Of a stretch of DNA of 64,000 bases, positions 19,364-44,109 are shown one piece after another (within the stretch, counting starts at the first letter, position 1; each line of letters opens with the position of its first letter). The notes below the pieces were generated by a model. That model was not told the DNA's origin and did no database searches. It worked only from the letters and a program-made list of their open reading frames with translations. Source of the DNA: Apostichopus japonicus (Eukaryota > Echinodermata > Holothuroidea > Aspidochirotida > Stichopodidae); NCBI RefSeq assembly GCF_037975245.1, contig NC_092572.1, positions 27,759,989 through 27,823,988 on the forward strand, written 5' to 3'. The position numbers and the translations under genes are program-made.

Positions 19364-19368
<5 letters not shown>

Positions 19369-19897: not shown

Positions 19898-20074
19898 CTT
19901 CAGGACCGCTACTTGATTCCCCAAGCAGGGAGATGGAGTATTTGGATAAGAGAGGCTTTCCTTCTCTTCTGGTCCTTGCCCTCATAGGGCCATAATGGAC
20001 ACCTAAAGAGTCACCAATGATTTCGAAGTCTGCTTCTGCAAGAAGCCTGCCAGCTTTGAGGGAAGATTGTACCC
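19898..20074 (-). CDS. BRCA1-type BRCT domain, third exon (end of BRCT 1 and linker)
   Basis: The exon is bounded by acceptor AATATAG (20075) and donor GAAG|GTGATT (19898/19897). It enters in phase 1, completing the Trp codon split from the previous exon, and leaves in phase 1. The residues WVQSSLKAGRLLAEADFEI follow the family pattern of the end of BRCA1 BRCT 1, where a Trp-Val pair is followed by a helix and an acidic-aromatic DFE motif. GPMRARTRREGKPL then matches the basic linker before BRCT 2. The start of a second BRCT strand (KYSISLLG) is present, but the rest of BRCT 2 was not found downstream. BRCT pairs bind phospho-SxxF peptides in DNA-damage signalling; with BRCT 2 unseen, that role is inferred only. 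Confidence 0.75.
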
Positions 20075-21175
20075 CTATATTACAAAGGGATGAGAATAGA
20101 CAAAACATGAAGAACCATTATCTACAGTACATTACATTTTTAATGGCTGATTTTCAGAACTTCTTAAAATCTCAAGTGCTGTACCTCTTAATTATTATAG
20201 AAATTTCCAAAACTACCGTCAGCAAAGAAATAAAATTGGAAGCTTAATATCTACCAGTAAGAACTGCTTTCAACATATATTCAATGAAGTAATAGCAAGA
20301 GATCATTCTCAATATATGCACATTTGCTGAGCTGAAAGACATTTGTCTATTTATGATCATTATCACTTTAAACTTCCCCTGTTCAAAATACAAGAAGTTC
20401 AGGAACCAAAATGGCTCAGCAAAATTTCAAAAACTCATTCAAATGAGTGGCATGCAAAGAAGCACCCCTAATGCAAACAGGTGGACAGAACAAAATTGTT
20501 TCTTAATTTGCCCGCATTAACATATCATCATTAGCTGCTGCCATACCACACATGCTCCAAGCATAAAGGAGTGAAACCTACACATATAGTCAGTATATTT
20601 CAAATTCCAATAACACACAAATGTTTTGAAACTGTATGCCCAATGCAACTTCCATTTAACTGTCTAATCACTCTCAATATGTCAAGTGACTGTGTTGTAC
20701 CATATATAACTTCCATTTACAAAATGACCTGTTTCAAACAAGGATGATTATAAGTGCTTAGCAGAGAGACATATAATTGGAAACAATTCCATATTTAAAA
20801 GTTGTAACTGAAAAAGTTTTTTAAAGATAGTTCTATATTAGTTCTGCTATCACTGAAGCAACTGATGGGTGTTGCTTATTTTGGTTAACATTTTGTCCAA
20901 AGGCCAAAGCCACTCTTGAACTTTAATCTATCGTCACCCTTTGATGTTCTACAGTTTTGACTTCTTTATCCTTTTCTGCCCTGACACTGCCTTACTCAGG
21001 CCTATCTACATACTGAATGACTTTTGTCCTACTATATAGGGCATAGTCCTAAATCAGAAACAGAATCTTTGTACAACACTGCAGGTAAAAGGGCTGATCA
21101 AGCATATGTGCAGGTGATAAGAACATATTATAAACATATATAGTCACATGGACAGACAAATTCATTTAAACTTAC
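20075..21175. other. Intron of the BRCT part
   Basis: AT-rich intronic DNA without recognisable repeats or exons. The plus-strand open frame at 20017-20247 is opposite an exon and has no support. Confidence 0.5.
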
Positions 21176-21250
21176 ATGAGTAGCTCACTATCCACAATCC
21201 AGCAGCAATGCCTGTAATATACTTCATAGTTCTGGGACATTTCCCCTTTT
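21176..21250 (-). CDS. BRCA1-type BRCT domain, second exon
   Basis: This 75-nt exon has acceptor TTTTTTGCAG (21251) and donor TCAT|GTAAG (21176/21175), phase 1 at both ends. It encodes EKGKCPRTMKYITGIAAG followed by LWIVSYS. The order RT-(L/M)-KY-x-x-GIA-x-G-x-W-x-VSY is the hallmark of helix 2 and strand 4 of BRCA1 BRCT 1, including the conserved Gly and Trp of the hydrophobic core. It is the strongest single piece of evidence for a BRCA1-type rather than generic BRCT domain. It fits between the flanking exons in phase with no stop. Confidence 0.85.
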
Positions 21251-21652
21251 CTGCAAAAAAGATTTAAAACACAAAGTGATTTTGCTTCCTTTATTGTTTG
21301 TGAAATGACCTAATCAGTCCTTGATAAAATGTATGCATGTACACAACCTGCACTAGTTAATAAAGTTTATGAATGACATTCAAGAAGGTCAGCCTAAGGT
21401 CAGAATTTTGACAATGTCAACAAGTGCACACTTTTAAGGGTATTAAAGAACTCCTTATCACACCCAGCAATTAAACTCAAACATGAAGATATATGAAAGA
21501 ATACTGAAATCCATGAGTTTAGATATTTTATTCACATGTGCTGTTGGTTAATGATTACTTAAAAGATTTTGAAGTTACCAATAACATGAAGCGAGTTAAC
21601 TAACTGATAAAAGAATGAGAAGACATTAAAATAGAGTTACAACAATACTCAC

Positions 21653-21740
21653 CAGCAATGAGAATAACATGGGTTGTGGTACTCTCTATCATTGCAGTAT
21701 ATCTACAACCATGGAGGTCTGCCAGCTTCTGTATATGATT
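21653..21740 (-). CDS. BRCA1-type BRCT domain, first exon
   Basis: An 88-nt exon with acceptor TATACAG (21741) and donor GCTG|GTGAGT (21653/21652), entering in phase 0 and leaving in phase 1. It encodes NHIQKLADLHGCRYT and then an acidic turn followed by THVILIA. This is helix 1 plus strands 2 and 3 of a BRCT domain; the THV(I/V) strand after a Thr-rich turn is diagnostic. The preceding exon ends in SFVSSGL, which fits BRCT strand 1, so the domain spans four exons. The exon is short but its domain fit and splice sites agree. Confidence 0.8.
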
Positions 21741-22584
21741 CTGTATAGCAAAATCAGATAGGTTAAAAAAAATTGAAGTGAGTATAATTTGTCACTTATA
21801 ATTGTGAATATAAACCACATTTATGCTCTTAATTGAAGAGTATATTTAGGATCTTACTTTTGATCGATTTTCAAAGTCTGAAGCACAATCATGTAAATTC
21901 TAACACTAGAAATAACAGATAGTGAATAACTTTCTTTACAAGTCAGTAATATTCATATCCATGCATGCACAAAAGAGAATGTTCACATAAATGTCAAATA
22001 ACCTCTTAAAGGAGTTCACAAGAGCACCAATGGTACAGTAACTCATACCATAATGACAAGTATGAGTTAGAGCAGCTAATAAGAGTCCAATTAAAAACCC
22101 TTTGTCACAGCGTGAGCTGAATTTCAACCAAAGCTATTAGTATTCTGGATAATCACAAGTCTTTGACCAAAAAGTCCTTAAGATTAAAGATAAGAGCACA
22201 ATAATGGACAGCCTGCACCGAATAATACAACTCACCCTGCAATGAATGAATAGGCCTAACCTATATGCATATTGCATTAGCAAAGTTAAGTTTGGTATGG
22301 AGAGCAAAAATGTTTACAGTATGTTGTTTCCACTTGCCTTCAAGTTTTGAAAAGATCCCTAAATCTGCCTGTTGTTGTCAAAATGGCTGTTGATAACCCA
22401 AACTCTGACAAAATATTCCCCAACACACGCATAAACAAAAAACTGTACAGCAATAGGAAGGATATATTTATCTCCCTTTTCATAAAAATAGGTATCAGCT
22501 GTGTGAGTGTGTCCTGACATATGGTCTTGATAACAGAAAGTTTCTTAAGTTAACACACATGTCAATGGACAGAATACCACTCAC

Positions 22585-23009
22585 CTGCTGGGACCGATGC
22601 TTTAAGCCACTTGACACAAATGAGAATGCACTTAGGACAGTCTCTGCATCCATCTGGTCTGGCAAAGGATCACTTAGATTTTTTGTGTCTGCAGATCCAC
22701 TAGGGACAGTCTCTGCATCCATTTGGTCTGGCAAAGGATCACTTTGATTTTTGGTGTCTGCAGATCCACTAAAGACAGTCTCTGCATCCATCTGGTCTGG
22801 CAAAGGATCACTTTGATTTTTGGTGTCTGCAGATCCACTAGGGACAGTCTCTGCATCCATCTGGTCTGGCAAAGGATCACTTTGATTTTTGGTGTCTGCA
22901 GATCCACTAGGGACAGTCTCTGCATCCATCTGGTCTGGCAAAGGATCACTTTGATTTTTGGTGTCTGCACAATATTGTATGGTGCAACTATCAGGATTGA
23001 GATGATTTT
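22585..23009 (-). CDS. Exon with five 23-residue acidic repeats leading into the BRCT domain
   Basis: A 425-nt exon with acceptor CTTGTTTAG (23010) and donor CAGCAG|GTGAGT (22585/22584). It enters in phase 1, matching the kinase exon, and leaves in phase 0, matching the BRCT exon. After a short lead (ENHLNPDSCTIQYC) come five tandem copies of a 69-bp unit encoding ADTKNQSDPLPDQMDAETV plus PSGS, with only one or two changes each (for example P to F, Q to L). The exon then ends with FSFVSSGLKHRSQQ, whose VSSGL resembles the first strand of BRCA1 BRCT 1. The repeats are rich in Asp, Gln and Pro and probably disordered. Because the unit is a multiple of three, other frames and the opposite strand are also open; those are shadows. 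Near identity of copies points to recent expansion or homogenisation. Confidence 0.75.
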
Positions 23010-23899
23010 CTAAACAAGAAAAAATAATTGAATATGATAACAACACAAAGATCAGAGTGATTTTCGACATAGCTGAAGTGGCCAATGGTTCATATAAACA
23101 GGCCATATATTGGCAGATTTGATGCCCCAAAACAGTGAACAATTAAACAGATACATGCCTGCTTATATGCAAACATTTTGTAAAATCAACTTTTAATCAA
23201 ACTCGTCCTTGAATTGCAATATATATATTTATATATATATACATATATATATATATATGCCTCTTGATCATTCAACTTAATTAGTATTCAACTGATGAAT
23301 TCCAAAGACAGTAGAATCCTTCAATCCAGCTGCATAGTCACTTGCAAAATTCATAAAGACTTTCAAATTAATTGAAGCCCCGCCATTTCATTGATATATA
23401 AATGTAATAACAAGCATTTACAAATATCCCAAGCTGAGAACAATTGGGAATTGTGCAGTTTTAATTGTATGGCACTGCTCCAGCATTACTGCACTGTTAC
23501 TTGTCTTTGACTGTGTTCTTGGTACATATTTGTAAGTATATATGCTATATTTGTGGGTTGGTTATCCAACAATCTATTTAATGACACAACTTTTGTGGCC
23601 TTACTATATGCTCTGTAAGAACTAAAAGCTTGTGAAACAAGAAATGTAGGTGAGCTCCAAAACAATATTTACATTCAAAACAAACAATACATGAAAACTC
23701 TGAAAAGCACTTTCTGAGAGGTATACGTACCTTTGACAGTTTTGAATTCATATTTATACCGTACTTTCATACTTTAAACATACCAGTTTTTAAGAATTGC
23801 TTCTTAATCTGCTTTCACCTAACCAACCCTAAATCAAGCAGTGTTGAAGGTTTTACTCAGTCAATGCTGAGGCATAGAAGTTTTAGCCTAATAACTTAC
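23010..23899. other. Intron between kinase and repeat exons
   Basis: About 890 bp of AT-rich DNA with a TA-rich stretch at 23219-23258. I looked for a RING finger (the N-terminus of a separate BRCA1 gene), a promoter-proximal exon or an IRE1 KEN-type RNase domain and saw none. Confidence 0.5.
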
Positions 23900-24128
23900 C
23901 CTCATAAAATGCTATGCAATCCTCAACAGTGGGCCTCAGTTTTTCATCCCTGTTAAGCATGTTTTCCAATAGTGGCTGAAAAGTGTCATGTGTTCCAAGA
24001 TGTTTAAGGCTATATTGACCCTTTTTCATGTTTGTCACCACACCTTCTGGCTGATCAGTGTAAGGCACTGTGATTTCGAATGGGACATGTCCATCACTCA
24101 AAATGTAATACATGAGGCATGCCAACAT
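23900..24128 (-). CDS. IRE1-like protein kinase, third kinase exon (C-lobe end)
   Basis: A 229-nt exon with acceptor TTTCAG (24129) and donor GAGG|GTAAGT (23900/23899), entering in phase 0 and leaving in phase 1. It encodes MLACLMYYILSDGHVPFE, which corresponds to helix F and the following turn (usually D-x-x-S-x-G-C-x-x-Y-x-x-x-x-G-x-x-P-F). It then gives LLENMLNRDEKLRPTVEDCI, the helix H-I segment with the invariant Arg-Pro. The helix-F Asp lies at the end of the previous exon. The usual Gly of the S-x-G-C motif is Ala here. The domain ends near the exon end; no RNase (KEN) domain follows, unlike true IRE1. Confidence 0.8.
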
Positions 24129-25881
24129 CTGAAAGAAGGAAAAATACTTACAAAATAATTAAAATTGATCATAACTTTCAAATGTATTGTTTAAATTGTA
24201 TGTTAATCAATTTCAAAAAGTGAGATTGAAGATTTCCTTTTTTTCAAGACCGTCTCCTTAGTAGTGGATAGATAACTAACGTACCGCTGAAAATCATTTT
24301 GAAAATTGACTGTTTAATGATTTATGGCATAAAAAAGTAAAAATATTGTATAATAATGTTGTCAGATTGCTGCCAGTTTCCTGTACAGTAGAGATGCTTG
24401 TGGCATTTGTCTTCACAGAAATAACTAAATAGATAGTGGTGCAGTAGTTGTGTGGAGACAGGTTAGTGAGAAGTGAAGTCAATTTTAAAGATTTCCACCA
24501 TCCAGTGACTAACATATTTTGCATTGCTTATGGGGAAAAAATCACTGCAAACCAGTTGTTTAGGTATCATGCACTCAACTTTTACAAAATGTTATGACAG
24601 TTATGATCGCATGGATAGTTATGCAATTGGTTTTGAAGGACAGAAACCTGTTAAAGTTTTAAGTGTACATTATACAGTCTGTGCAATCATGATATTTTGG
24701 GATGTTGGGCCAAATTCTCTGTGTATCAGATAGTAATTAGAATGCAAGGCAAGCACATGTCGAGGTAATACAATCCAACACAATTACATTTCAATTGAAA
24801 ATTTGTTTGGGAAGTGTTTTATTATACAAATAATTTATTTTAGCATAAAAGAGTCATTTGATAACATGGTGTTTATAATCTAAGAAGAAAAGAGAGGTTG
24901 TTGCATGGATGAGTAGTTAGATCTATGTAGATTGGACAAGGTGTTTTCATAACAGTTATTAAGATTGATTATTTGTAATCTATGTAACACTAAGTAGGAG
25001 TAAAGTGGAGAAGCGTTATACTCCTTACCCAATTCCATGCTTTATCACTGATCAGAAGTAGTCTTGAAAATAACATGGAGTTAACAATATTCAAGAATGA
25101 GGCATATGAATAATAGATTCCACAATCACATTACCAGAGGCGACCGTCCACCGAACAGTGACCCTTCTTAATTTGCAAATAAGCTAACAGGGCTAAATAA
25201 ACCTTCCATGGCAAAAAGTATTACTGTCATGGCAAATGAAGTTATCCCATGACTTATGGAGTGCATGGCAAAACAATGTGAAATCACCCACAGTTGTCTC
25301 ATTTCCAATTTTCAATTGTGGCTTATAATCATTGTACAAATGTACTGTAAGTCCTGTAGTGTAAAACAAGAACTTGTATTGTTTTCTCTCGTCATCTTTC
25401 TTTACCAGGAAAACTTTCTGTCTCTACGGGAAAATCCTACTGTCCCAAAATCAAGAGCTTGTCCATTCTATTGATTTTTTTGTGACAAAATATATAATAG
25501 TCAACTCTTCAAACAGGGCTTCACTGTTCATATATTATTGACCTAACAGTAATTGTATGAAAGCAATAGCAGGATCATTGCAAAAGCTATCACATTTTAT
25601 ATTGATATCTTGAAAATGAAATATATATACTTATTATGTAATTAACATGTCTAATCTCAAGGAAGTGGTATGTAAGTGCAACCAACATAATGACATAAAG
25701 AATAGACTGGATAAAGTATATACTTCACTATTCCCTCGTTAAACAAACACTGGCTGAAACAGACAGTTTAAATCAATTTGTGAGTAATTTTTTTACTGCC
25801 AAGATATATTTAAGTAGCTTGACAGTGGCTCAAATACAGCAGCAATCCTGTTAATCAAAGCAAATAGTTGTTATGTCTCAC
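24129..25881. other. Intron within the kinase domain
   Basis: AT-rich intron of 1.75 kb without repeats I can name. Short open frames at 24294-24733 and 25256-25474 lack splice support. Confidence 0.5.
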
Positions 25882-26039
25882 CTGGTTATCAGATGACTTC
25901 TTGTACCAGCAACGATTGTTGCTGGTGTTTTCAGGACTTGTCCAGCAGAGAGTTCCCATTGCTTTTGTAAGAAGGGTAGTGCCATGGGTAAATTGTCTAG
26001 AAATACCAAAATCTCCCAGAAGTATCTTTTCATTGTGAT
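25882..26039 (-). CDS. IRE1-like protein kinase, second kinase exon (DFG and activation loop)
   Basis: A 158-nt exon with acceptor GTTCATAG (26040) and donor ACCAG|GTGAGA (25882/25881), entering in phase 1 and leaving in phase 0. It encodes DHNEKILLGDFGISRQF, with the metal-binding DFG at exon residues 10-12. An activation loop follows with GTLCWTSPE, the APE-type motif. The loop contains Thr residues that could be phosphorylated. KKSSDNQ at the end supplies the helix-F Asp. Joined to the previous exon, it restores NVLLDHNEKILLGDFG without gap, as expected for an IRE1-family kinase. Confidence 0.85.
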
Positions 26040-26976
26040 CTATGAACAAACAAAAGCAATTAATGTGCAATTAGTATAGACAATAAATCCATAAAAGACA
26101 ATTTGATTTCTGCACAGAAAGGTGACTATTGTTACTTTTACATAACTAATAAAATAAAATTATACCTTTATATATGATTTTCTGTTTTAATTGAAGCTGT
26201 AAAGCTATTAAATTAAAAGTTTCTTCTACATGATTTTAAAACCACTGCAATGTTTGTGGCTTTAACTTGGTAAAATGATATATGGACATTTACAAATTTA
26301 ATTCTACCTCATCTGCTCGGTGGTACTTTTCCTCACTGAGACTTTAAATAATATATATTGCTTATTTTGGCGAATAAGAAAGAACCACTGGGAGGTATTC
26401 CTTTATATAATTCCCATTATGCATTTGATGTAAACAAACTGAAAGAATATGAATTGCCTATTTCTTTGCCTGTGTGATCCTGTAATCACACCTTTATCTT
26501 TATCTCTGTTTACAAGCAAGCAGATTGTTTTGATATTCAATTTACTAGTTGGCTGTTGGGCAGCCCTGAATGACACTCACATAGCAAATTGCAATGTAAA
26601 CAAAAGTTATCATTCTTAATGTTTAAATGAAAATTTCAAATTTTCTAGCACTATGTGTATTAACCAAAAATTTGGAATGAATAACATCATTCAAAAGATT
26701 TGACTGTAAAATATAAATCAATACTGAGAGTGATAACTTGAAGGCAAACTGGGACTAACAGTTTTAGCATGCTTAAAATTGAGGGCAATTCTCATTGACC
26801 TGTGACCAAAATTACAATCATGCATGGCTCTTCTGCTGTTGGTTTTTGTAATGCTGTGCAAAAGTTGTGTTGAATTTGATACAAACAAGTTAATGACCAG
26901 CACCATGGAATGGAAATCTCTAATACTCAATACAACATTCTGAAATGACTCTCAAACAAGCCCTGTGACTGCTTAC
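26040..26976. other. Intron within the kinase domain
   Basis: AT-rich intron, about 0.94 kb. The short open frame at 26718-26930 is not supported. Confidence 0.5.
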
Positions 26977-27457
26977 CTAAGAGAACATTTCTTGGTTTCA
27001 AGTCCCGGTGGAGAATGTTCAGTTGATGCAATTCTGCAATGCCGAGCATAAGTTGATAAGTTAGAGATGCTCTTTTGTTTGCTGTGAGCTGAGGTCTTAA
27101 TGGGTTCCCCTTGTTTTCAATTATTTCCTCTAAGTTATATTCACAAAGGGGTGAAGATAAATAGAGAAAGTCATCATCTTCTTCTGAAAGTGTGTTTCTT
27201 AGCAAATGCTTTGATCCTTGCATGCCCTCATTAAGCACTTTATTAACATTTTGTTCCATAGAGTGGGTGCCCTGGTGCAGTCTTTTGATTGCTACAGGCC
27301 ATTGCTCATCTACCAGTCCAATGAAAATTTGTGCGCCATTGCTACCTTCAGCAATTTTGTACTGCCTGCTGAAAGAAAGTCGCCCAATTGACTTGACACA
27401 AACTCCAGAGTCTTTGTTTAGGAGCTGCTCTAACTGAAGAGCCCATCGCTGTTGGTT
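26977..27457 (-). CDS. IRE1-like protein kinase, first kinase exon (N-lobe to catalytic loop)
   Basis: A 481-nt exon with acceptor TTTATTAG (27458) and donor CTTAG|GTAAGC (26977/26976), entering in phase 0 and leaving in phase 1; 160 whole codons. The domain starts near residue 22 with KSIGRLSFSRQYKIAEGSNG, resembling the IRE1 start (glycine loop G38-S-N-G41). The VAIK lysine is at residue 58. The catalytic loop HRDLKPRNVLL lies at residues 150-160, so the ATP- and Mg-binding residues are intact. LCEYNLEEII and LTYQLMLGIAELHQLNILHR are typical of IRE1-related kinases expanded in fishes and marine invertebrates. True IRE1 also has a lumenal sensor and transmembrane segment upstream; neither is seen here, so the protein is probably soluble. 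Substrate unknown. Confidence 0.9.
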
Positions 27458-27599
27458 CTAATAAAGAACAAAATTCAATTGCATTAAATCAATTTCTAAC
27501 AAAACACTGACTTGAGAGAAAGAACATCCAACAGTTATTTTAACATAACTTCTTCCAAGAGACCTGTATATGCTAATTAGGTAAACACTTTACACTCAG

Positions 27600-30265
27600 G
27601 TGGCCATGATTTTAAAACGTAACTGTAACAGACAGGTTAGAATCCACCCTCAAACACAGGACCATAGTAAGGGTCATTAGGTATACACTGTTCATTCAGT
27701 AGCCATGAAAAAGTAACTGTAACAGACAGGTTAGAATCCACCCTCAAACACAGGACCATGTCACCATAGTAAGGGTCATTAGGTATACACTGTACATTCA
27801 GGTGGTCATATAAAAGTAACTGTAACAGACAGGTTAGAATCCACCCTCAAACACAGGACCATGGTAAGGGTCATTAGGTATACACTGTACATTCAGTAGC
27901 CATATAAAAGTAACTGTAACAGACAGGTTAGAATCCACCCTCAAACACAGGACCATGTCACCATGGTAAGGGTCATTAGGTATACACTACACATTCAGTA
28001 GCCATATAAAAGTAACTGTAACAGACAGGTTAGAATCCACCCTCAAACACAGGACCATGGTAAGGGTCATTAGGTATACACTGTACATTCAGGTGGTCAT
28101 GAAAAAGTAACTGTAACAGACATGTTAGAATCCACCCTCAAACACAGGACCATGTCACCATGGTAAGGGTCATTAGGTATACACTGTACATTCAGTAGCC
28201 ATATAAAAGTAACTGTAACGGTTAGAATCCACCCTCAAACACAGGACCATAGTAAGGGCCATTAGGTATACACTGTACATTCAGTAGCCATATAAAAGTA
28301 ACTGTAACAGACAGGTTAGAATCCACTCTTAAACACAGGACCATAGTCATTAGGTACACACTGTACATTCAGTAGCCATGAAAAAGTAACTGTAACAGAC
28401 AGGTTAGAATCCACCCTCAAACACAGGACCATAGTAAGGGTCATTAGGTACACACTGTACATTCAGGTAGTCATATAAAAGTAACTGTAACAGACAAGTT
28501 AGAATCCACCCTCAAACACAGGACCATAGTAAGGGCCATTAGGTATACACTGTACATTCAGTAGCCATATAAAAGTAACTGTAACAGACAGGTTAGAATC
28601 CACCCTCAAACACAGGACCATGTCACCATGGTAAGGGTCATTAGGTATACACTACACATTCAGTAGCCATATAAAAGTAACTGTAACAGACAGGTTAGAA
28701 TCCACCCTCAAACACAGGACCATGGTAAGGGTCATTAGGTATACACTGTACATTCAGGTGGTCATGAAAAAGTAACTGTAACAGACATGTTAGAATCCAC
28801 CCTCAAACACAGGACCATATGTCACCATGGTAAGGGTCATTAGGTATACACTGTACATTCAGTAGCCATATAAAAGTAACTGTAACAGACAGGTTAGAAT
28901 CCACCCTCAAACACAGGACCATGTCACCATGGTAAGGGTCATTAGGTATACACTGTACATTCAGTAGCCATATAAAAGTAACTGTAACGGTTAGAATCCA
29001 CCCTCAAACACAGGACCATGGTAAGGGTCATTAGGTATACACTGTACATTCAGTAGCCATATAAAAGTAACTGTAACAGACAGGTTAGAATCCACTCTTA
29101 AACACAGGACCATAGTCATTAGGTACACACTGTACATTCAGTAGCCATGAAAAAGTAACTGTAACAGACAGGTTAGAATCCACCCTCAAACACAGGACCA
29201 TAGTAAGGGTCATTAGGTACACACTGTACATTCAGGTAGTCATATAAAAGTAACTGTAACAGACAAGTTAGAATCCACCCTCAAACACAGGACCATAGTA
29301 AGGGCCATTAGGTATACACTGTACATTCAGTAGCCATATAAAAGTAACTGTAACAGACAGGTTAGAATCCACCCTCAAACACAGGACCATGTCACCATGG
29401 TAAGGGTCATTAGGTATACACTACACATTCAGTAGCCATATAAAAGTAACTGTAACAGACAGGTTAGAATCCACCCTCAAACACAGGACCATGGTAAGGG
29501 TCATTAGGTATACACTGTACATTCAGGTGGTCATGAAAAAGTAACTGTAACAGACATGTTAGAATCCACCCTCAAACACAGGACCATATGTCACCATGGT
29601 AAGGGTCATTAGGTATACACTGTACATTCAGTAGCCATATAAAAGTAACTGTAACAGACAGGTTAGAATCCACCCTCAAACACAGGACCATGTCACCATG
29701 GTAAGGGTCATTAGGTATACACTGTACATTCAGTAGCCATATAAAAGTAACTGTAACGGTTAGAATCCACCCTCAAACACAGGACCATGGTAAGGGTCAT
29801 TAGGTATACACTGTACATTCAGTAGCCATATAAAAGTAACTGTAACAGACATGTTAGAATCCACCCTCAAACACAGGACCATGTCACCATGGTAAGGGTC
29901 ATTAGGTATACACTGTACATTCAGTAGCCATATAAAAGTAACTGTAACAGACAGGTTAGAATCCACCCTCAAACACAGGACCATGGTAAGGGTCATTAGG
30001 TATACACTGTACATTCAGTAGCCATATAAAAGTAACTGTAACAGACAGGTTAGAATCCACCCTCAAACACAGGACCATAGTAAGGGTCATTAGGTATACA
30101 CTGTACATTCAGTAGCCATATAAAAGTAACTGTAACAGACAGGTTAGAATCCACCCTCAAACACAGGACCATAGTAAGGGTCATTAGGTAAACACTGTAC
30201 GTTTAGGTGGATATGATTTGACAAAGTCAATGTAACAGCGAGGTTAGAATCCACTCTCAAACACT
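27600..30265. repeat. Minisatellite of about 95-bp units with a 770-bp higher-order repeat, about 28 copies
   Basis: The phrase ccaccctcaaacacaggacc recurs about every 90-104 bp from 27640 to 30150, with a diverged last copy near 30250. Units vary by an optional gtcaccat insert and by gtagccatataaaag versus ggtggtcatgaaaaag. Rare variants (gtaacggttagaatcc near 28216, 28986 and 29756; ccactcttaaacac near 28323 and 29093) recur every 770 bp, or eight units, showing higher-order copying. The array lies in the intron between the linker and kinase exons. The open frame at 29760-30014 is just this repeat. Confidence 0.95.
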
Positions 30266-31517: not shown

Positions 31518-31666
31518 CTGTGAAAACGACGAAAGCATATTAAGCCAACATAAAATATTCTTACCAGAAAAAATAACAGAAAAAAGGCAGCAGTATAACC
31601 TGCCACCACTTTGCTATTGAACAAGCTACCAATATATTTACAGGAATCAATGAATGTTTTACTCAC

Positions 31667-31818: not shown

Positions 31819-31865
31819 CTAAACTGCAAAGCAAAGTGCAAATATTTACAAGTTTTCATTGAAAG

Positions 31866-32444: not shown

Positions 32445-32590
32445 ACTGAAAATGTGTATTTCATTTCCGGACTGAAAACGTGTATTTTATTTTCGGACTG
32501 AAAACGTGTATTTTATTTTCGGACTGAAAACGTGTATTTCATTTTCGGACTGAAAACTTGTCGGACTGAAAAGTTGTCGGACTGAGGGTT
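32445..32590. repeat. Short tandem repeat, about 30-bp unit, 4-6 copies
   Basis: The phrase ttcggactgaaaacgtgtat recurs at about 30-bp spacing from 32465, with two shortened copies (gtcggactgaaaa) at the 3' end. It sits just before the gypsy remnant. Confidence 0.85.
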
Positions 32591-32689
32591 GTACCCCACC
32601 TGTACAACAGTCCAATGACCATGGCACTGTATTGATATCTTACCACTTCCTTTTGAGAACTTGGAGAAATGGCATGGCAGAGAAAAGGG

Positions 32690-33211
32690 ATGCAGATTGC
32701 AAAGGCTTTGCTAATGAAGGCAAAGTAAAGTGGACAAGATCCATACCTAGCTTTATTAGACTACAGGAATACACCAAGAGATAATATTCTCGAACCACCT
32801 GTACAACGACTGTTTGGACGAAGGACAAAGACCCTACTTCCAACAACTGAACATTTACTCAAGCCAAAAATACTGAAGCCAGAGACAGTACACAAAAGAC
32901 TAGTAGAGAAGAAACAAACACAAAAAAAAACCCTATTTTGACAGACAGACAAAGCTATTACCAGAACTGCAACCAGGAGATAATGTTCACATATACAGAC
33001 TGACAAAAGTTGGAAACCAGTCACTATTGTATCTAATGCTGAACAGCCCAAATCATACATTGTAGAGACAGGTGAAGGTGTACAGTATAGACGCAACCGC
33101 AAACATTTACTTCAAACTGGTGAAACATTTAGTTATGACGACAATGATATAGTTAATTCTGACAATGAACAAACCTCTTCAGAGGACCAAACCACGAACA
33201 CTGATTTATGA
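32690..33211 (+). pseudogene. Ty3/gypsy-like polyprotein remnant (integrase C-terminal part)
   Basis: With frame changes, the plus strand reads DPYLALLDYRNTPRDNILEP, RLFGRRTKTLLP, then KSWKPVTIVSNAEQPKSYIV and YRRNRKHLLQTGE, ending at a TGA (33209-33211). These are the usual tail motifs of Ty3/gypsy integrases in marine invertebrates (ALLDYRNTP, GRRTKTLLP, YRRNRKHL). At least one in-frame stop (near 32938) and a frame change at the 5' side show decay. Reverse transcriptase, protease and gag are absent, so this is a 5'-truncated copy lying inside the large SET-gene intron, on the opposite strand. Confidence 0.8.
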
Positions 33212-33424
33212 AGAAGTATTAGAGCAAATTTAGACAAAACCACGTTGGCACAGTGACTATGAAATGTGACCAAAGGAATTTAATTATTTCTGATAGTGAA
33301 GCGATAGTCATTTGGTAACCTAGAACCAGTTGTCAAATCTTTGCTAGAAATTGATTTTATGGTTATGCAGTGTTAGGTAAAAGTATATTTTTTCTCATCC
33401 GAGTCCTTAAATTTATTTTAACTG

Positions 33425-33712
33425 AAAAGGGGAGATGTAACATGTTGTACTCATTCTACAGTATTTTACTTTACACCTCCCTTTAGCAACCACAATATGT
33501 CCTGTTGTAACCACCAACCTACCTTAAGAAGCATGGGGCTGTGGTCACTCTCAGGAATGTTTGTATAGGACATATATATGATGCATGTTAGTAGAAGTAG
33601 TTAAGAACAATGAATCTGTTATAATGACACGTATAATATACACACTGTACATATTCAAATGGTTAAATTAGAAGACTTTACTATTAAATGAATTTCAGCT
33701 AGTACATACATC
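33425..33712 (+). mobile_element. Polypurine tract and putative 3' LTR of the gypsy remnant
   Basis: AAAAGGGGAGA (33425-33435) directly precedes TGTAACATGTTG at 33436. This is the standard arrangement of a polypurine primer followed by an LTR starting TGTAACA. It lies about 210 bp after the integrase stop. The LTR end is uncertain; a TACA near 33709-33712 is a possible end, followed by a GTACAGTGT-rich repeat to about 33870. No matching 5' LTR is in the window. Confidence 0.6.
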
Positions 33713-33870
33713 TATGTACAGTGTGTACTGTACATACACTGTACTGGGTGTATATGTACAGTGTGTATATTAGTGTTAGGTTTAAACATAGTCTTCTGGC
33801 ACTCATGGCACTCCGTACATATACACTCAGTACAGTGTATGTACTGTACACACTGTACATACATATATAT
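33713..33870. repeat. GTACAGTGT-type palindromic simple repeat
   Basis: Repeated tgtacagtgt and its complement (acactgtaca) alternate, so the stretch can pair with itself. Open frames there are artefacts. Confidence 0.75.
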
Positions 33871-35359
33871 GTACTGGTTGAAATCCCAAACTTTGAGGAT
33901 TTTTCATTTCAAAATATGGCAAAACACCCTCCTGAAATTTTTTGTACAAACAGGGTGGTACAATATCTCTTCGAGAAAAAATTATCAGATTTTTTTGAAT
34001 TTGACACGTTTTGAGTTATTGGCCGTCAAAGACGACCTCTTTTGTACATCTGAGCAACTTAACAACTTCATAAATTAATATTGAGAACAGCTAGAACCCT
34101 GAAATTTGTTAAGGTGAGGTGTAAGAACTTTATACTAATAATTCAAGTATAAAACCCTGACAGCTCTAACATGGTTACTTTGGTAAAAAATTAGCATCAA
34201 AACCCCTACCTCATGCTGAATCGCATCATGAAATAGCAACTTAAGAGTTGCACAACTTGCAAACATATTATAGGAAAGCATTGTAATCATTATTTTGTAA
34301 TGTTTATACTAGAAATAATAACATCTGAAAAAATTAAGTACCCTGAAGCAATGGTTTAGGAGCAATTCATCACTAAAAATGGCACATTTTTTAGTGAAAA
34401 GTACAAAAATCGAATATTTTGACACTTTTAAGTTGACCTAACTCAACAAGACAATATTTTTGTAGCCTAATTTTTTATTTTCCTGTTCTATGGGATAGAC
34501 TCTATAGGCTTCTGTAATAGAAAGGTAGTAGAATGTTTAATTGCTGAGAAATGAGACCTCAAAAGTCAAGAAAATGTCAAAATGCCATGGTGGCGACAAA
34601 TTGCGGAATTTCAAAGTGTGATAAATCGGCCAATTGTAAAGAAATGCAACTGAAATGTTCAGAATATGCTTGTTTCATGGTGGTCCAATCATACAAAAAG
34701 TTTGGGAATTTTTCAGATGTCAAACTACAACATACCCCAAAATTTGGTGATTTGATATGGAATGACCCATCACTTAATAGCTACATTTAGCTTCGATAGA
34801 AAACCGTAGATAGCTGTTAGTACTAACATACACTCTTGAAGGCCCTTTGAAATAGTATACTTGAGCTGTCATTAGAACATTAAGATGCTTACTTAGGTCA
34901 CACAAAGGTCAGTCACTTGTGTTACTTGAAATAAAGCTGATCATGGCATTTTGTAATAAAAACAATTGCATTATATCTAAGTAACTCACAGGATTGAAGA
35001 AACCTAATAACCTAATATGTATCTTTCAAAAAGCACATTCCATGTAAAAAGTTCACCGCTCCTCTTAAAATCTGCTAGTTGCATGTTGCATATAATGATA
35101 TGCTGTATTGGCCCCAAATATGTCAGATTTTCAAATATGGTTACCTTTGGTAACAATTCTTAAAATATTTTTATTAACACCCTGGAGGCTGGAGGGAATT
35201 AATTACCTCAATGAGACATACACCCATCATGTACATTCACTTAGGATGTCAGAGAACAATTTAGAGAGTAAACACCCCAGGAACGTATTTTTATTTTAAA
35301 ACTCCTATATTTATATCATGCTATAATTTGGGACATATAGTCATACAGACTGCCTTTAA
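33871..35359. other. Intronic DNA, no gene seen
   Basis: AT-rich sequence within the long intron before the SET exons. Plus-strand open frames at 34551-34790 and 35108-35299 have no domain or splice support. Confidence 0.4.
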
Positions 35360-35367
35360 CTTAAACC

Positions 35368-37284
35368 CAGGCGCGGCGGAACGGAAAAATTATTGGGGGG
35401 GCTAATGTGTGGAGACTATCTAAGCGGAGCGCCACCATCGGTTGGCGCGGAGCGTACAAGAAAATTTTGGGTTTTTTCAAACCCCCAGATGGCCGGAAAC
35501 GGCACTTCCCGAGTGTTTTATGCTTCGAATACCTAGCCCTAAAATATGGGTCTCAAGCCTGCAATTTCTCTGATTGCACGTAAAAGTCTGTAAAAACATT
35601 GTTATTTGTATATCCGATGGTGTTTTAAGAGAGTAGCTATTACTCGAAGTGTACTCGCAAAGACGTTTCTTGAGTGTAGTAAGGGCAGTGGCGGAGCTAG
35701 GGGTATTGGTCGGGGGCGGGGGGGCAAGAATGGTCTGTAGGGGCACTTTCGACACTATCTAATGGGAGCGCCACCACAGGTTGGCGCGGAGCGTACAGAT
35801 ATTTTTTGAGTAAAGATACTCCCTAGATTGCAGGAAATGACCCTCTCCGGGCCGCGAATTTTTTTTCCTGAACCTTTCGGGCAGTGTACGTGGAGTTTAG
35901 CCAATCAGAGCGAGGCTGTGTTGATGACATACTACTCAGTAAAGATGGTCAGTCCGGTAAATGCGTCGCTTCAATAACATAAGGTGGAAAACGAAAGACC
36001 GCGAGTTCGAGCCCATGTGTGGATTTTCCCCCCACTTTTTCTCATGTCCAAGTAGTTATGTCCAAGTATTATATTATGAATTGAAATACGATATTATAAG
36101 TTATATCATGGTTTTAGTGCATGGTCATCTTATATATGTGTGTACAAATATTGCTGTGTACATGTGTGTAAACTGTAAGTACGTAACATACTACTTTGTG
36201 GGTAGAAAAATGAAGGAAGGCCATTTGGGCCAGTGAGGGTGTACAGTGTTAAAAGATTACCAGGGCATTCTAGACACGGTAGAATGCGGTGCATAGGTTG
36301 TGGGGAGACAGGTAAGTGGGTCACTCGTAAATATATAAACCAGTAAGTTTTATAATGTACCAGTACTACAGTACTGAGTACAGTGTCATGTCCATCTGAA
36401 GACATTGTAAATTTTTACATCAGACAGCGATCATACATCGCCGTTTTTCAACAAAGAAACCGATGCAAACGTCACGTAAGTTGTGCACAATGATTCAGTA
36501 TATGTCATTATTGCAAGGCCTACATACCTTAATACTATCTGCTGTAGTACAACAATTATGTTGACTTATCGAATGTGATTTCCCCACTTCAACCTTTGGT
36601 AAGCACGCCTCCATCTTTACTGAGTAGTACGTCATCAACACAGCCTCGCTCTGATTGGCTAAACTCCACGTACACTGCCCGAAAGGTTCAGGAAAAAGAA
36701 ATTCGCCTCCGGGTCTTGCTAATTTGCAGATAAACGGAGAATAAATAGGTGTCGTCGCCATTTTGTCGGAAAATTACACCAACAGAATATGACAAATGTC
36801 AATAGATAGATGAGAGCGCAATAAAATAGTCAATAATCGCGAATAATTAAAAAGTAGTGAAAAGCTGAAAAGGGCGCCAGCAGTCTATTTTGAGTCCGTC
36901 AGGACGCTCCGCCACTGAGTAAGGGGATGTTGGAGAACTGGCTGAAATGAGGCAAGTCATTGGCCTAAGACGAAGTTGTGTTGAGCTTACCGGTACTCAC
37001 ACTCACTGCTTCCACTTTTCACGGGGCGTGAAGAAGCGGTTGGGGTGACAATGTGGTCTATAGCCAGGGGACGGGCCGAGGGTCCTCCAGCATTTACTAA
37101 AATTATTACACCTGTATAGTATACGTGTGCATCGGACAGATCGACAAGTATGCATTGAAAAATGGGCAGATGCACGTTTCGGAGCCTTGGTAAATATTGG
37201 GGGGGCTTATCATGCATTTGCCCCCTCAACTTTTTTATTGGGGGGGCTGAGCCCCCCCAAGCCCCCCCGGTTCCGCCGCCACTG
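35368..37284. mobile_element. Outer hAT-like non-autonomous element, 1,917 bp
   Basis: Left terminus CAGGCGCGGCGGAACGG and right terminus CCGGTTCCGCCGCCACTG are inverted repeats with small differences. The flanks are a perfect 8-bp duplication CTTAAACC (35360-35367 and 37285-37292). G-runs (tgggggggc) lie just inside both ends. There is no transposase. The element contains a second element (35686-36917), so its own length was about 680 bp. Open frames at its right end (36987-37468) come from its GC-rich terminal sequence and are not genes. Confidence 0.88.
35686..36917. mobile_element. Inner hAT-like element nested in the outer one, 1,232 bp
   Basis: Termini CAGTGGCGGAGC and GCTCCGCCACTG are perfect inverted repeats. 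A perfect 8-bp duplication AGTAAGGG flanks it (35678-35685 and 36918-36925). Inside, 35861-35950 and 36609-36700 are inverted copies of each other (both contain cgtggagtttagccaatcag in one orientation). A tRNA B-box-like gcgagttcgagccc occurs near 36001. A minus-strand frame beginning ATGGAGGCGTGC (36614) runs to a donor-like AAG|GTATGT near 36529; it may be a captured or relic 5' exon. Confidence 0.88.
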
Positions 37285-37758
37285 CTTAAACCAGTCACTT
37301 GTCCGGCATTGTTTGGTCACATATGTGACATTGTATCCATGCACATACAGAGTGTTCATTGTAAATGTTGCCTTGTTTAAATCTGAATGTGTCCAGGAGC
37401 ATGGGGGTGCATGGTTGGACATGTGGCATCAGCAAATCAGTGAATGCCACCATTCTCAACCAAATTAGGCAAACTTAAAATTGTTTGTGACATAACATGT
37501 GCTTCACAACACACCATTTAATCAATATTAATAATATTGGAGGAGAAAGGGAGAGGGAAGGGATGTCGGTATTAAAATTCACATTTTTCTCTGTATGTAA
37601 CTAAGCAGTAGCGTGCTCAAGGAGAGTTGTATAACATTAGCTGAACCTCAATACTGTACCAAGATACTGTACTGGGACATAGCATTCAGGTTATTCCATA
37701 CTCAGAGTACTTTGGCCTTGACTGCAATTTAGCTAAGAATGTATGAAGGGCTGGAGTC

Positions 37759-39968
37759 TATGGCGGGCCATCAGTCTCAAATCATGGGAGATCGACTTAT
37801 ACCGATTTAAATCGACATATACCAGTTTCCTTCGACATATACCAGTTTCCTTCGACTTATACCAGTTTCATTCTACATATCATCGATTTAAATCGACATA
37901 TACCAGTTTCATTCTACATATCATCGATTTAAATCGACATATACCAGTTTCATTCTACATATCATCGATTTATTTTACTTATCATCGATTTAAATCGATG
38001 ATAAGTAAAATAAATCGATGATATGTCGAAGTAAACTGGTATATGTCGATTTAAATCGATGATATGTAGAATGAAACTGGTATATGTCAATTTAAATCGA
38101 CATATCATCGATTTATTCTACATATCATCGATTTATTTTACTTATCATCGATTTAAATCGATGATAAGTAAAATAAATCGATGATATGTCGAAGTAAACT
38201 GGTATATGTCGATTTAAATCGATGATATGTAGAATGAAACTGGTATATGTCGATTTAAATCGACATATCATCGATTTATTCTACATATCATCGATTTATT
38301 TTACTTATCATCGATTTAAATCGATGATATGTAAAATAAATCGATGATATGTCCATTTAAATCGACATCTACCAGTTTAAATCGATGATATGTCGAATTA
38401 AATCGGTAGAAGTCAATTTCCGTGGACTTATACCAGTTTCTAGCGTCTCAAATTGACATATACCTATTTAAATCGACATATCATCGATTTAGCTCATTAA
38501 CATATTCCAAATCCCGATTTCGGTGATGATTGACATGTGGAGATACATCACGTGTAGTCACCTGACAAGGCGGGCGAATAATTGAAAATAAACACGAGCA
38601 CAGTGGAATGCATGATTTGAGCTTGAATACTGTAACTGTTAAACCCCATGGGTATATACTTAGCTACATTAAAACGTAACCTTACAGTAGGCCTCACTGC
38701 AGAACAATATCATCTTTGTTTATGGTGTAACTGGAGTAGGTAATTGCATCTGTGTACGTACTGTGGGCCTATTCAGTTGCATGTGTATTCCTATACTATA
38801 GCGCCATGTGTTTGAGTAGACAAGCCCAGTTTGCATTGAGATAATTGCACGTCATTGACATATCAGTTATTTCAGCCTTATTGTTACACCGAAATCTTTT
38901 TGCAAGTAATTGTTCATAATTACCATTGACATATAACCATGATGAACACCCTTGCTAGCTTCGTAATTTTGGAACTATTAAATTACTCGCCCGCCTTGTC
39001 AGGTGACTACACGTGATGTATCTCCACATGTCAATCATCACCGAAATCGGGATTTGGAATATGTTAATGAGCTAAATCGATGATATGTCGATTTAAATAG
39101 GTATATGTCGATTTGAGACGCTAGAAACTGGTATAAGTCCACGGAAATTGGCTTCTACCGATTTAATTCGACATATCATCGATTTAAACTGGTAGATGTC
39201 GATTTAAATGGACATATCATCGATTTATTTTACATATCATCGATTTAAATCGATGATAAGTAAAATAAATCGATGATATGTAGAATAAATCGATGATATG
39301 TCGATTTAAATCGACATATACCAGTTTCATTCTACATATCATCGATTTAAATCGACATATACCAGTTTACTTCGACATATCATCGATTTATTTTACTTAT
39401 CATCGATTTAAATCGATGATAAGTAAAATAAATCGATGATATGTAGAATAAATCGATGATATGTCGATTTAAATTGACATATACCAGTTTCATTCTACAT
39501 ATCATTGATTTAAATCGACATATACCAGTTTACTTCGACATATCATCGATTTATTTTACTTATCATCGATTTAAATCGATGATAAGTAAAATAAATCGAT
39601 GATATGTAGAATAAATCGATGATATGTCGATTTAAATTGACATATACCAGTTTCATTCTACATATCATCGATTTAAATCGACATATACCAGTTTACTTCG
39701 ACATATCATCGATTTATTTTACTTATCATCGATTTAAATCGATGATAAGTAAAATAAATCGATGATATGTAGAATGAAACTGGTATATGTCGATTTAAAT
39801 CGATGATATGTAGAATGAAACTGGTATATGTCGATTTAAATCGATGATATGTAGAATGAAACTGGTATAAGTCGAAGGAAACTGGTATATGTCGAAGGAA
39901 ACTGGTATATGTCGATTTAAATCGGTATAAGTCGATCTCCCATGATTTGAGACTGATGGCCCGCCATA
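37759..39968. mobile_element. Foldback-type transposable element, 2,210 bp
   Basis: Starts TATGGCGGGCCATCAGTCTC and ends with its exact complement. It is flanked by a 6-bp duplication GGAGTC (37753-37758 and 39969-39974). The left arm (37759 to about 38583) and right arm (about 38981 to 39968) are inverted copies of different length. Both are built from short repeats of cgatttaaatcga, catatcatcgat, cgacatataccagttt and cttatcatcgattta. The arms also hold internal perfect palindromes, for example around 38000 and 38160. The central spacer of about 400 bp has no open frame. The structure matches foldback elements such as Drosophila FB and the sea urchin TU family; membership in either is not shown. 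Confidence 0.85.
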
Positions 39969-39974
39969 GGAGTC

Positions 39975-42233
39975 TACATGCTACATGGTGAAGTAGATTG
40001 TAGGTTTTGGAGTGCAGGCATATGTAGAGTAAATCACACTCTGCTACATTACATTTGAAACACTAGTAAGATGATTGAAAATTTAGTGATAAAAGATGTG
40101 TATTCTTCTTTATCTGTGAAGAATTGGCAGTAGTGAAACTATTGTGTGGTTCATTCAATTCCATTGGCTCGGGATGGTGATGGATTCCAATCTTAAGTGT
40201 ATTAGGAACTGTAGTATTTCACTGTCAAATATTAGTGGACACTTAGTATGTCATAAGCAACAAGCACATTTGGCTTCGGAGGTTGCTTGCACAGTTTAGC
40301 TGTGGCTCTGCTGTACACATGATCACCAAGCTTTAACATGTTACTTTATTTAATCCTTGTTAAAAAGTTTAGTTAATGACAGCAAATTAAAATTTAATTG
40401 AAGAATTTTCAACAACCAATGTCAATGAAATCAAGATTGCATTATATCTAAAACAGGTTTCCAATGTTTGCAATGTAATAGTACTTAGTATGTGGTAACT
40501 GCTGGTATGCAATTTATGTGAATACACGTCACCTATTAGTGACACTTAAACCAAGTAACCTAAAAAAAAAAAAAAAATTCTTATCCACACCCTGAAATAA
40601 TCAGGGGATTCAAGGGAGTGTAACACGCTTTCAACCCAGACCAATTAGAATTATATTACTAGATTAAATTGCCTGAAATGGTTTGTTAACCCATACTGAC
40701 AACATGATAATTGTACTGTAAGCCAAGTTGCAAACTGTGCCATTGCTATTTATGTCATCTGTGCAACAGACTAATAACCATGGCATTGGAAATTTCCAGT
40801 TTTCTTTGACAATTTGATATGCTGAATCTCAAATTCAAGCAGTTATGTTTATGGTCAAAAAGTTACTGACCAGGCTAGTGAAAGTTAAATTCAAGGATCA
40901 GTTTGGGTCATTTTATAACAAAAATGTCAAAGTTTCCAAAGGTTTACCTTCCCTGAAATGGCAATGGATTTGGTTGAACATATCCATAATTCATGACGAT
41001 GCAGGGAAACTTCAGATCAGGGCAGATGAGGGTGTAAGAGGGATATGGTAAATAGCTGATCATCTCAGCTTAGGATCAAGTATCCTTAGTGTGCATGAAT
41101 GAAAATTGACTAATTGAATGGTGCTCCTGATTTTTTACTTTTGAATGTAACTGTATCTATTGTCTGTAAAGGCCAGTTGGAGATTATATTTAAAGGACCT
41201 TCAAATACACTCTTTGCTACTTCATGCATGTTCGTTTAGTTATATGATTTACAGTTAAAATTAATTGTATTTAATTTCCTTAATTCTTACAAATTGATCC
41301 CTTGTTTAAAGCTATAAACATCAAATATCTGTGTTTTGAAACATCAAGGTAATTTTAGGTAACTGTATGCCTCTTAACAATTCCCTTTAAATGGGTTGGT
41401 TTATACATGGAGGTAAATCCATAGCAGGGTATGGTTACCTGAACCTAGAAATAGCTTGAGGCTCCATTGCTTGTTAAGTTGTAGATAGTACAGATTACAT
41501 TTTGTTGACCTGGATTCAGGTCACTCTATGGTATACCAATGGACTTAGACATAATTAAATTAAAAGGTTTTATTAATGTTTTTTTCTAAATCTTTTGTGC
41601 AATCAGTGTCAAATATAGTATGCTAGAGCTTTGTGCTTGAGGATCATGAATCAGCTAAAGAAGAAATTGTGAAAAAAAGGACTGGAGCAAGCTGGTAGCA
41701 CTTCTGGATATAGATAATTATCAGTCGGTAAGGTTCCAGAGAACCTGTACAAGCACCAATAATTTCACAAATTTCAGGTTAATAGTGTGACCAACCCACC
41801 CCCACCCCTACCAAGATAATGAACCATGTAGATTATAAGCTTGACTATTTTCATAAAGATCCTCTAATTACGCCTTTGGCTTTTTCTTAGAATTATTATT
41901 AATAAAAATATTCTTAATTTTTTTTCAGGATGTGTCAGGGTCAATTTTCTAGCTGCAGTAAATTGCATTAGAATTAGAACTTAATCCAATCTCAGAGATA
42001 GGCTTTGTTTAAAGACTCCTTCTCTTTCCTTGTTTAACAAATTGGAGCAGGAAATGTGTCACAACAATTCATCAACCGTGTGAACTGTACCTTCCACATT
42101 AATTAACACTTAAGGCCCACATCACGGTTAGGGCAGGTGGGATTAATAGCAGTGCAAAAGAGGCAAATTGCAAGTTAAGTTGAATCAGTCATGTACATAA
42201 ATAGTATATCAAAAAATAATTGCAGGACATTAC
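39975..42233. other. Intronic DNA, no gene seen
   Basis: AT-rich unique-looking sequence with a poly-A run near 40561. A plus-strand open frame at 40845-41051 has no domain or splice support. It lies in the long intron between the lead-in exon and the SET exons. Confidence 0.4.
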
Positions 42234-42337
42234 CTTTAAGGGGAACTTGCTGTACGAGAAAGCCATCTCTGTCTTTGTTTTTACATATGACCGTGCCACT
42301 TCCTCCGGCTTTTCTCTCTTTCTTCTCATAATTAGGA
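42234..42337 (-). CDS. Lead-in exon just upstream of the SET domain
   Basis: A 104-nt exon with acceptor GCTTTTCAG (42338) and donor CTTAAAG|GTAATG (42234/42233), entering in phase 2 and leaving in phase 1. It encodes PNYEKKERKAGGSG, then KNKDRDGFLVQQVPLK. In KMT5A relatives a short strand of this kind (GF-x-V followed by a few residues) directly precedes GRGVFA. Its last base G completes the Gly of GRGVFA in the SET exon at 31818, so QVPLK joins GRGVFA with no gap. The intron between would be 10.4 kb and is stuffed with transposons. There is no ATG in the exon, so at least one more 5' exon is needed. Confidence 0.55.
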
Positions 42338-44099: not shown

Positions 44100-44109
44100 T
44101 ATGGTTGGC

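What the first reader, a model, noticed from the sequence alone, without database searches (positions are those of the whole stretch)
19898..42337. Possible SET - IRE1-like kinase - BRCA1-type BRCT fusion gene
Eleven minus-strand exons in order encode a KMT5A-like SET domain, a charged linker, an IRE1-type kinase, a repeat segment and a BRCA1-type BRCT domain. Every junction is phase-compatible: phase 1 into SET, 2 within SET, 0, 0, 1, 0, 1, 0, 1, 1. No intervening start exon, terminal exon or polyadenylation signal was evident between the parts. Chromatin methylation, a signalling kinase and a DNA-damage phospho-peptide reader would sit in one polypeptide. I know of no described protein with this domain order, so it is either a new architecture or neighbouring genes that only look joined.
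Basis: partly seen in the sequence, partly recalled or inferred. Interest (0 to 1): 0.88.

Follow-up and report, generated by a model that had tools for sequence, protein, structure and literature searches.

The report
Giant transposon encoding SET-kinase-BRCT recombinase
The three-part "fusion gene" is a decayed copy of the gene of a large sea-cucumber jumping element, whose intact form joins a histone-methyltransferase domain, a stress-kinase-like domain and BRCA1-like domains to the enzyme that probably moves the element.

Summary
In the window copy the SET frame is broken: a frameshift, then a second frameshift and a stop.

The gene lies inside a 41.6-kb mobile element, window 11,596-53,226, with precise ends (imperfect 27-bp inverted termini, 18 of 27 matching) set in phase into a (TATG)n microsatellite. 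The BRCT module occurs at 9 places on 7 contigs of Apostichopus japonicus. In one copy (C19) I predict one open frame of 1,779 aa over 15 GT-AG exons: SET, linker, kinase, repeats, BRCT1-BRCT2, acidic stretch, zinc fingers, tyrosine recombinase. The window copy lacks BRCT2 and the recombinase.

Other species have SET-recombinase and BRCT-recombinase proteins. The four nearest recombinase relatives listed in this genome have kinase exons upstream. I saw all modules together only here. So this is one gene family, but a transposon's, and this copy is broken. No transcript evidence was available.

The parts
11596..53226 (-). Whole mobile element, window copy (41,631 bp)
   Evidence: colinear with C22, C19 and C9 copies up to the same terminal sequences; lengths 41,631 / 29,888 / 45,413 / 34,853
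53200..53226 (-). Upstream-side terminus GCACCATACCTTGAATGTCAGGACATG
   Evidence: 7 exact hits in the genome, 0 for the reversed control
11596..11622 (-). Downstream-side terminus CATGTCCCGACTTTACTCATTGGGTGC; its reverse complement matches the other terminus at 18 of 27 positions
   Evidence: 9 hits in the genome (8 exact, 1 with one mismatch), 0 for the reversed control
53227..53777 (.). (CATA)n / (TATG)n microsatellite, target flank on the gene's 5' side
   Evidence: TRF; junction TATGTAT|GCACC
11332..11595 (.). (ATAC)n / (TATG)n microsatellite, target flank on the gene's 3' side
   Evidence: TRF; junction GGTGC|GTATG
10828..10900 (+). tRNA-like stretch, perhaps the head of a SINE whose tail holds the target microsatellite
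   Evidence: Rfam tRNA 43.2 bits; SINE identity is inferred
42234..42329 (-). Exon 1 (N-terminus of the SET protein; frame changes inside relative to C19)
   Evidence: aligns with residues 1-33 of the C19 protein
31667..31818 (-). SET exon a (private frameshift in this copy)
   Evidence: acceptor TTTAG|GAAGAGG as in C19
31303..31517 (-). SET exon b (frameshift and in-frame stop shared with C22 and C9)
30617..30730 (-). Charged linker exon; NCBI model P0001 starts at a Met inside it
26977..27457 (-). Kinase exon A (VAIK, HRDLKPRN)
25882..26039 (-). Kinase exon B (DFG)
23900..24128 (-). Kinase exon C (C-lobe end; no KEN RNase follows)
22585..23009 (-). 23-aa repeat exon (4.9 copies of a 69-bp unit), ends with the start of BRCT1
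21653..21740 (-). BRCT1 exon 1
21176..21250 (-). BRCT1 exon 2
19898..20074 (-). BRCT1 exon 3 and BRCT1-BRCT2 linker
19305..19368 (.). Junction where about 6.6 kb (BRCT2, acidic exon, zinc fingers, recombinase) of C19 is missing; (TA)n stands there

Best explanation
The window holds a decayed, internally deleted copy of a large DNA transposon of the sea cucumber Apostichopus japonicus that moves by a tyrosine recombinase (YR). The transposon's single multi-exon gene encodes one long protein: KMT5A-like SET, IRE1-like kinase without the RNase part, 23-aa repeats, BRCA1-type tandem BRCT, acidic stretch, two zinc fingers and YR. Shown by sequence: the ends, the target microsatellite, the dispersed copies, and an open frame in the C19 copy under my splice prediction. 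Inferred: the YR binds the termini, recombines the element (probably through a circle) with (TATG)n tracts, and can move deleted copies such as this one in trans; the BRCT and SET modules would tether the recombinase to phosphorylated or damaged chromatin and modify it, with the kinase regulating this or host signalling.
Confidence: 0.86

Rival explanations
1. Neighbouring genes: a SET-recombinase transposon, a kinase gene and a BRCT gene lie side by side and only look joined; the blocks were copied as segmental duplications.
For: The window SET is broken while kinase and BRCT1 stay open. NCBI's model starts in the linker exon without SET. The open frame before the repeat exon contains a Met. 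No RNA evidence.
Against: C19 has one predicted open frame through all parts, with matching phases. SET, BRCT and (by position) kinase each occur with a YR in other proteins or loci. Identical precise ends inside microsatellites, with left flanks unrelated in 5 of 6 pairs, are not what segmental duplication gives.
Confidence: 0.08
2. A domesticated host gene: the kinase-BRCT protein of the window is a functional host gene derived from the transposon.
For: Kinase and BRCT1 frames of the window copy are open; NCBI models it as a 594-aa protein. BRCT1 shows 4 silent and 0 replacement codon differences from C19; kinase dN 0.017 is below dS 0.037.
Against: The model ends by reading into an intron and BRCT2 is missing; the kinase still shows 11 replacement versus 6 silent codon changes; copies decay in different ways.
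Confidence: 0.06
3. An endogenous large virus or virus-like element with a YR, like nimaviruses that insert in microsatellites.
For: [quoted passage not shown]
Against: Among the C19 frames of 90 aa or more, none outside the one gene looked like a virus gene to me; a reverse-transcriptase-like relic and repeat-derived frames were seen (read by eye, not searched against profiles).
Confidence: 0.03

Closest known systems
SET-YR proteins of animals (e.g. P0041 Strongylocentrotus purpuratus, P0045 A. japonicus, P0048 Danio rerio, P0171 Holothuria leucospilota)
   Same: KMT5A-like SET near the N-terminus and zinc-finger YR in one predicted protein
   Different: no match to the element's kinase or BRCT at E 1e-3
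BRCT-YR proteins of oysters (P0052 Magallana gigas, P0054 Saccostrea cucullata)
   Same: BRCT similar to the element's before the zinc-finger YR
   Different: no SET or kinase match; far away in a quick YR tree
Animal Cryptons (CryptonA, CryptonI; PMC3212892, passages seen)
   Same: YR DNA transposons without reverse transcriptase
   Different: animal Cryptons are reported without terminal repeats and match DUF3504; here there are imperfect inverted termini, no DUF3504 match was listed for the C19 exon, and the element is 30-45 kb
Starship / Enterprise giant YR transposons of fungi (search listing with abstract starts only)
   Same: giant size and a YR
   Different: fungal; cargo is separate genes, whereas here foreign domains are fused to the recombinase
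Telomere-repeat-inserting YRs of endogenous nimaviruses (PMC10871703, passages seen)
   Same: YR with C2H2 and insertion into short tandem repeats
   Different: part of viral genomes (majaniviruses 278-401 kb); (TAACC)n target; no SET, kinase or BRCT fusion in the passages I saw

Membership tests
Tyrosine-recombinase DNA transposon | YR fold | tested here: met
Tyrosine-recombinase DNA transposon | Conserved catalytic Arg, Lys, Arg, His, Tyr | tested here: met
   K421 and R494 invariant; R370, H520, Y529 in 90% or more of 32 sequences; the same motifs are in the C19 frame. The box II His position is Thr, so 5 of the 6 residues named here (roles recalled).
Tyrosine-recombinase DNA transposon | Dispersed copies with precise ends | tested here: met
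   9 places; 7 left and 9 right termini; 4 of 4 copies compared end to end
Tyrosine-recombinase DNA transposon | Demonstrated excision or integration | not testable with these tools
   needs other individuals or experiments
Crypton (animal groups A and I) | YR similar to DUF3504 | tested here: inconclusive
   Not among the 3 families matched by the C19 exon at E up to 1, nor among the 25 of 38 shown for 32 relatives; animal Cryptons are reported to match at 8e-12 or better. I did not check that this Pfam copy holds the DUF3504 model.
Crypton (animal groups A and I) | No terminal repeats | tested here: not met
   27-bp termini, 18 of 27 inverted matches; the similarity is partial
Starship | DUF3435-type YR in a Pezizomycotina fungus, with separate cargo genes | tested here: not met
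   Host is a sea cucumber; one fused gene predicted, no other gene seen by eye; DUF3435 not listed (label recalled)
KMT5A | SET closest to KMT5A | tested here: met
   KMT5A best solved match, 5.2e-17 (window sequence with X at breaks)
KMT5A | Intact SET frame | tested here: not met
   broken in the window, C22 and C9; intact in C19
IRE1 | IRE1-type kinase | tested here: met
   IRE1 best solved match, 6.2e-22
IRE1 | KEN RNase after the kinase, luminal and transmembrane part before it | tested here: not met
   Kinase is followed by 23-aa repeats and BRCT and preceded by a linker and SET; Pfam lists no RNase in the kinase or in the repeat-BRCT part
BRCA1 | BRCA1-type BRCT | tested here: met
   BRCA1 best solved match, 5.1e-18
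BRCA1 | N-terminal RING and tandem BRCT at the C-terminus | tested here: not met
   BRCTs lie in the middle of the predicted C19 protein, the N-terminus is SET; no RING among the Pfam matches of the parts scanned

The most novel reading that the evidence does not exclude
Animals host an undescribed superfamily of zinc-finger tyrosine-recombinase transposons that repeatedly take up host chromatin and signalling domains (KMT5A-like SET, IRE1-like kinase, BRCA1-type BRCT) as fused modules of the recombinase. In Apostichopus japonicus all three sit in one 1,779-aa protein, and the element targets (TATG)n tracts. It would thus aim itself at chosen chromatin and damage states.
Probability: 0.5. Interest if true: 0.85.

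Novelty: new variant of a known kind. Interest (0 to 1): 0.72.

Why it matters
Large YR transposons carrying host-like genes are known from fungi (Starships); animal YR elements are, as I recall, mostly small. Here an animal YR element of 30-45 kb carries chromatin and signalling domains fused to its own recombinase, and relatives in sea urchin, fish and bivalves carry SET or BRCT. That makes testable whether transposons use histone methylation, phosphorylation and phospho-peptide reading to choose sites or escape silencing. It also explains why annotation calls some such proteins 'KMT5A-B' or 'breast cancer type 1 susceptibility protein': these names can mislead gene-family and DNA-repair studies in invertebrates.

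Tried and rejected
Sponge origin, from the IRE1-like kinase, was my first guess; wrong. BRCT2 in the window: none of the listed minus-strand frames below 19,898 fits by eye, and tblastn with the C19 protein finds nothing past residue 919. A signal-peptide-like start before the repeat exon: judged to be the acceptor's pyrimidine tract read as protein. A SINE as the required target: rejected, because the C10 copy lies in (TATG)n without the SINE-like flank. tRNA-like heads in the flanks of other copies: Rfam and ARAGORN found none (the four matches are below gathering scores); only the window has one. The end of a second SET-YR element family was not reached within 2 kb. Kinase-YR in the fish protein P0047: a full-protein HMM scan gave nothing; its first 60 residues alone scored 14.6 bits against at most 6.1 in 1,000 shuffles, a lead only. 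The own-genome SET search never ran, so SET was compared in 4 copies only. Fold matches outside YRs and type IB topoisomerases were not followed. Searches scored only the 7,995, 7,992 and 7,986 candidates sharing most words; one search listed 120 of 840 hits and its length filter (about 980-3,100 aa) leaves out ordinary KMT5A proteins, so 'every SET hit has a YR' holds for that list only.

Paper searches whose listed titles and abstract starts showed no YR transposon with SET, BRCT or kinase: 20 of 67 listed; 12 of 12; 12 of 12; 15 of 17; 10 of 68; 2 of 2; 0; 9 of 9; 10 of 54. Of PMC3212892, PMC10871703 and PMC13228809 I saw passages. The library holds no bioRxiv preprints and few subscription papers.
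Full report
What was checked first. The eight exons from 30730 to 19898 on the minus strand are present, have GT-AG sites and keep one frame. Pfam and solved-structure searches give SET/KMT5A, kinase/IRE1 and BRCT/BRCA1 BRCT1. The SET exons of the window do not read through: the KMT5A-like sequence changes frame in the first SET exon, again near the start of the second, and meets an in-frame TAA. The second frameshift and the stop recur in the C22 and C9 copies, the first is private to the window, and C19 has neither; exon 1 also changes frame in the window, C22 and C9 relative to C19. So the SET is dead in this copy.

Host and annotation. The 594-aa protein P0001, from a contig of 34,621,101 bases, the length of the window's C12, is annotated as Apostichopus japonicus. 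It joins kinase and BRCT, starts in the linker exon and ends by reading into the intron after 19898. P0002, another A. japonicus model, runs from the repeats and BRCT1 into part of a BRCT2 and a zinc-finger stretch.

A mobile element. The repeat-BRCT module hits nine places on seven contigs; the repeat pieces are mostly 88-100% identical and the last BRCT exons 91-98%. A tenth, 33% match on C23 is distant. I fetched 60 kb around three places (C22, C19, C9) plus 20 kb beside the window. The window is colinear with all three from about 11.3 to 53.7 kb, mostly at 93-99% and down to about 80% in tandem arrays, with insertions. Outside it only short matches of 65-318 bp were seen. All four blocks begin GCACCATACCTTGAATGTCAGGACATG and end CATGTCCCGACTTTACTCATTGGGTGC, and are flanked on both sides by (TATG)n in the same phase. 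The two ends match as inverted repeats at 18 of 27 positions. Genome-wide, with up to 2 mismatches, the left end occurs 7 times and the right end 9 times; reversed controls gave 0. No left end was found for the first C13 copy, C16 or C17, and no right end for C17. Right flanks of C22, C19 and C9 align over 244-297 bp (96-98%), of which roughly the first 65 bp are microsatellite and the rest SINE-like; the window's flank aligns at 81-84% over about 93 bp. Left flanks gave no match in 5 of 6 pairs; the sixth shares 72 bp. C10 lies in (TATG)n without the SINE-like flank, so the microsatellite is the target. On C13, two neighbouring copies stand head to tail with a 232-bp (TATG/TGTG)n spacer; the exact 40,027-bp period of the module hits could also be partly an assembly duplication.

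The intact gene. C19 holds about 6.6 kb that is missing at window 19,305-19,368 and from C22 and C9. It contains the rest of the gene: two BRCT2 exons, an acidic exon and a 747-aa exon frame. Spliced by my prediction, C19 gives 1,779 aa from ATG to stop over 15 exons, all 14 introns GT-AG. Mapped back, the window contains residues 1-919 in pieces and none of 920-1779. C19's kinase exon uses an acceptor 9 nt downstream of the window's. C22 (kinase exon A broken, exon C absent) and C9 (kinase exon C and last BRCT1 exon broken) have further damage. No other plausible gene was seen in the C19 element by eye, apart from a reverse-transcriptase-like relic.

Modularity. Among the 272 proteins listed by my three searches, phmmer with the four C19 modules found SET+YR in 10, BRCT+YR in 3 (one of them P0002, from this species), kinase+BRCT in 1 (the window's own P0001), and SET+kinase in 0. 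Every SET hit also had YR, but the third search excluded short proteins such as ordinary KMT5A and listed 120 of 840 hits. The four non-focal YR loci listed at 47-52% identity (C17 three times, C8) each have IRE1-like kinase exons 3.5 to 12 kb upstream on the same strand. A random point would have a YR candidate within 15 kb downstream on its strand with probability about 0.0075. In a quick tree of 115 YR rows the C19 recombinase lies in a clade of ten (SH-aLRT 100) with the sea-urchin SET-YR, while the oyster BRCT-YRs are far away. So SET-YR is widespread, kinase next to YR marks a wider group in this genome, and the full set was seen only in this element.

How it probably works. Shown: ends, target, copies, and a predicted open frame in C19. 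Inferred: the YR joins ends and target without an obvious duplication. TATGTAT plus GTATG continues the microsatellite in phase, so a short duplication cannot be excluded. Three of the four compared copies lack the recombinase yet lie at separate sites, which fits movement in trans, though copying of a deleted ancestor by other means is possible. BRCT1 shows 4 silent and no replacement codon differences between window and C19; the kinase shows 6 silent and 11 replacement codon differences (dN 0.017, dS 0.037). The numbers are small. Roles of SET, kinase and BRCT are guesses from known families: chromatin marking, regulation, and tethering to phosphorylated chromatin proteins.

Comparison with known systems. 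Animal Cryptons are reported without terminal repeats and match DUF3504 (PMC3212892, passages); here the ends are imperfect inverted repeats and no DUF3504 match was listed for the C19 exon. YRs that insert into telomeric repeats are known in endogenous nimaviruses (PMC10871703, passages). Giant YR elements are known in fungi (listing). I found no paper describing YR transposons with SET, kinase or BRCT fusions in the searches named under Tried and rejected, whose listings were partly capped. I therefore call it a new variant of a known kind.

Limits. 

Noticed in passing
window 37760-39969 and 35367-37285: Two stretches (about 2.2 and 1.9 kb) are in the window copy but absent from the chains with C22, C19 and C9, so they look like later nested insertions.
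   Followed up: partly
window 27576-30272, 16930-19305, 11744-12830: Long tandem arrays (94, 185/471 and 208 bp units) inside the element; the chains with other copies break or stack there, so array lengths seem to vary.
   Followed up: no
window 22635-22969; C19:16125801-16126768: The 69-bp coding repeat has 4.9 copies in the window and, from the exon lengths (425 and 968 bp), about 13 in C19: an in-frame protein repeat that expands between copies.
   Followed up: partly
G000:C13:9232880-9328724: Three module copies with an exact 40,027-bp period; two right-end/left-end joints, one of them read as a 232-bp (TATG/TGTG)n spacer; the last right end is 24 bp out of period and the first copy's left end was not found. 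Tandem integration or assembly duplication.
   Followed up: partly
G000:C16:38283591: A right end with no left end or BRCT module found on C16: a solo or truncated copy next to (TATG)n and the SINE-like flank.
   Followed up: partly
L047, L048, L049: The C-terminal end of a second SET-YR family (by eye the same C-terminus as P0045) lies on C9, C16 and C11 with about 98-99% identity continuing at least 1.7 kb past its stop codon: another recently copied element.
   Followed up: partly
G000:C16:1104408-1584421: Cluster of IRE1-like kinase exons at 32-50% identity to the element kinase, possibly the host family from which it was taken.
   Followed up: no
P0047 (Garra rufa), residues 1-38: Fish recombinase protein begins with what looks like the end of an IRE1-like kinase C-lobe (14.6 bits versus at most 6.1 in 1,000 shuffles; nothing in the full-protein scan).
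   Followed up: partly
P0180 and P0181 (Mytilus galloprovincialis): SET-YR proteins that also carry a precomputed collagen-repeat domain.
   Followed up: no
window 3072-3890, minus strand: 273-aa open frame outside the element that reads to me like a beta-propeller protein; not identified.
   Followed up: no
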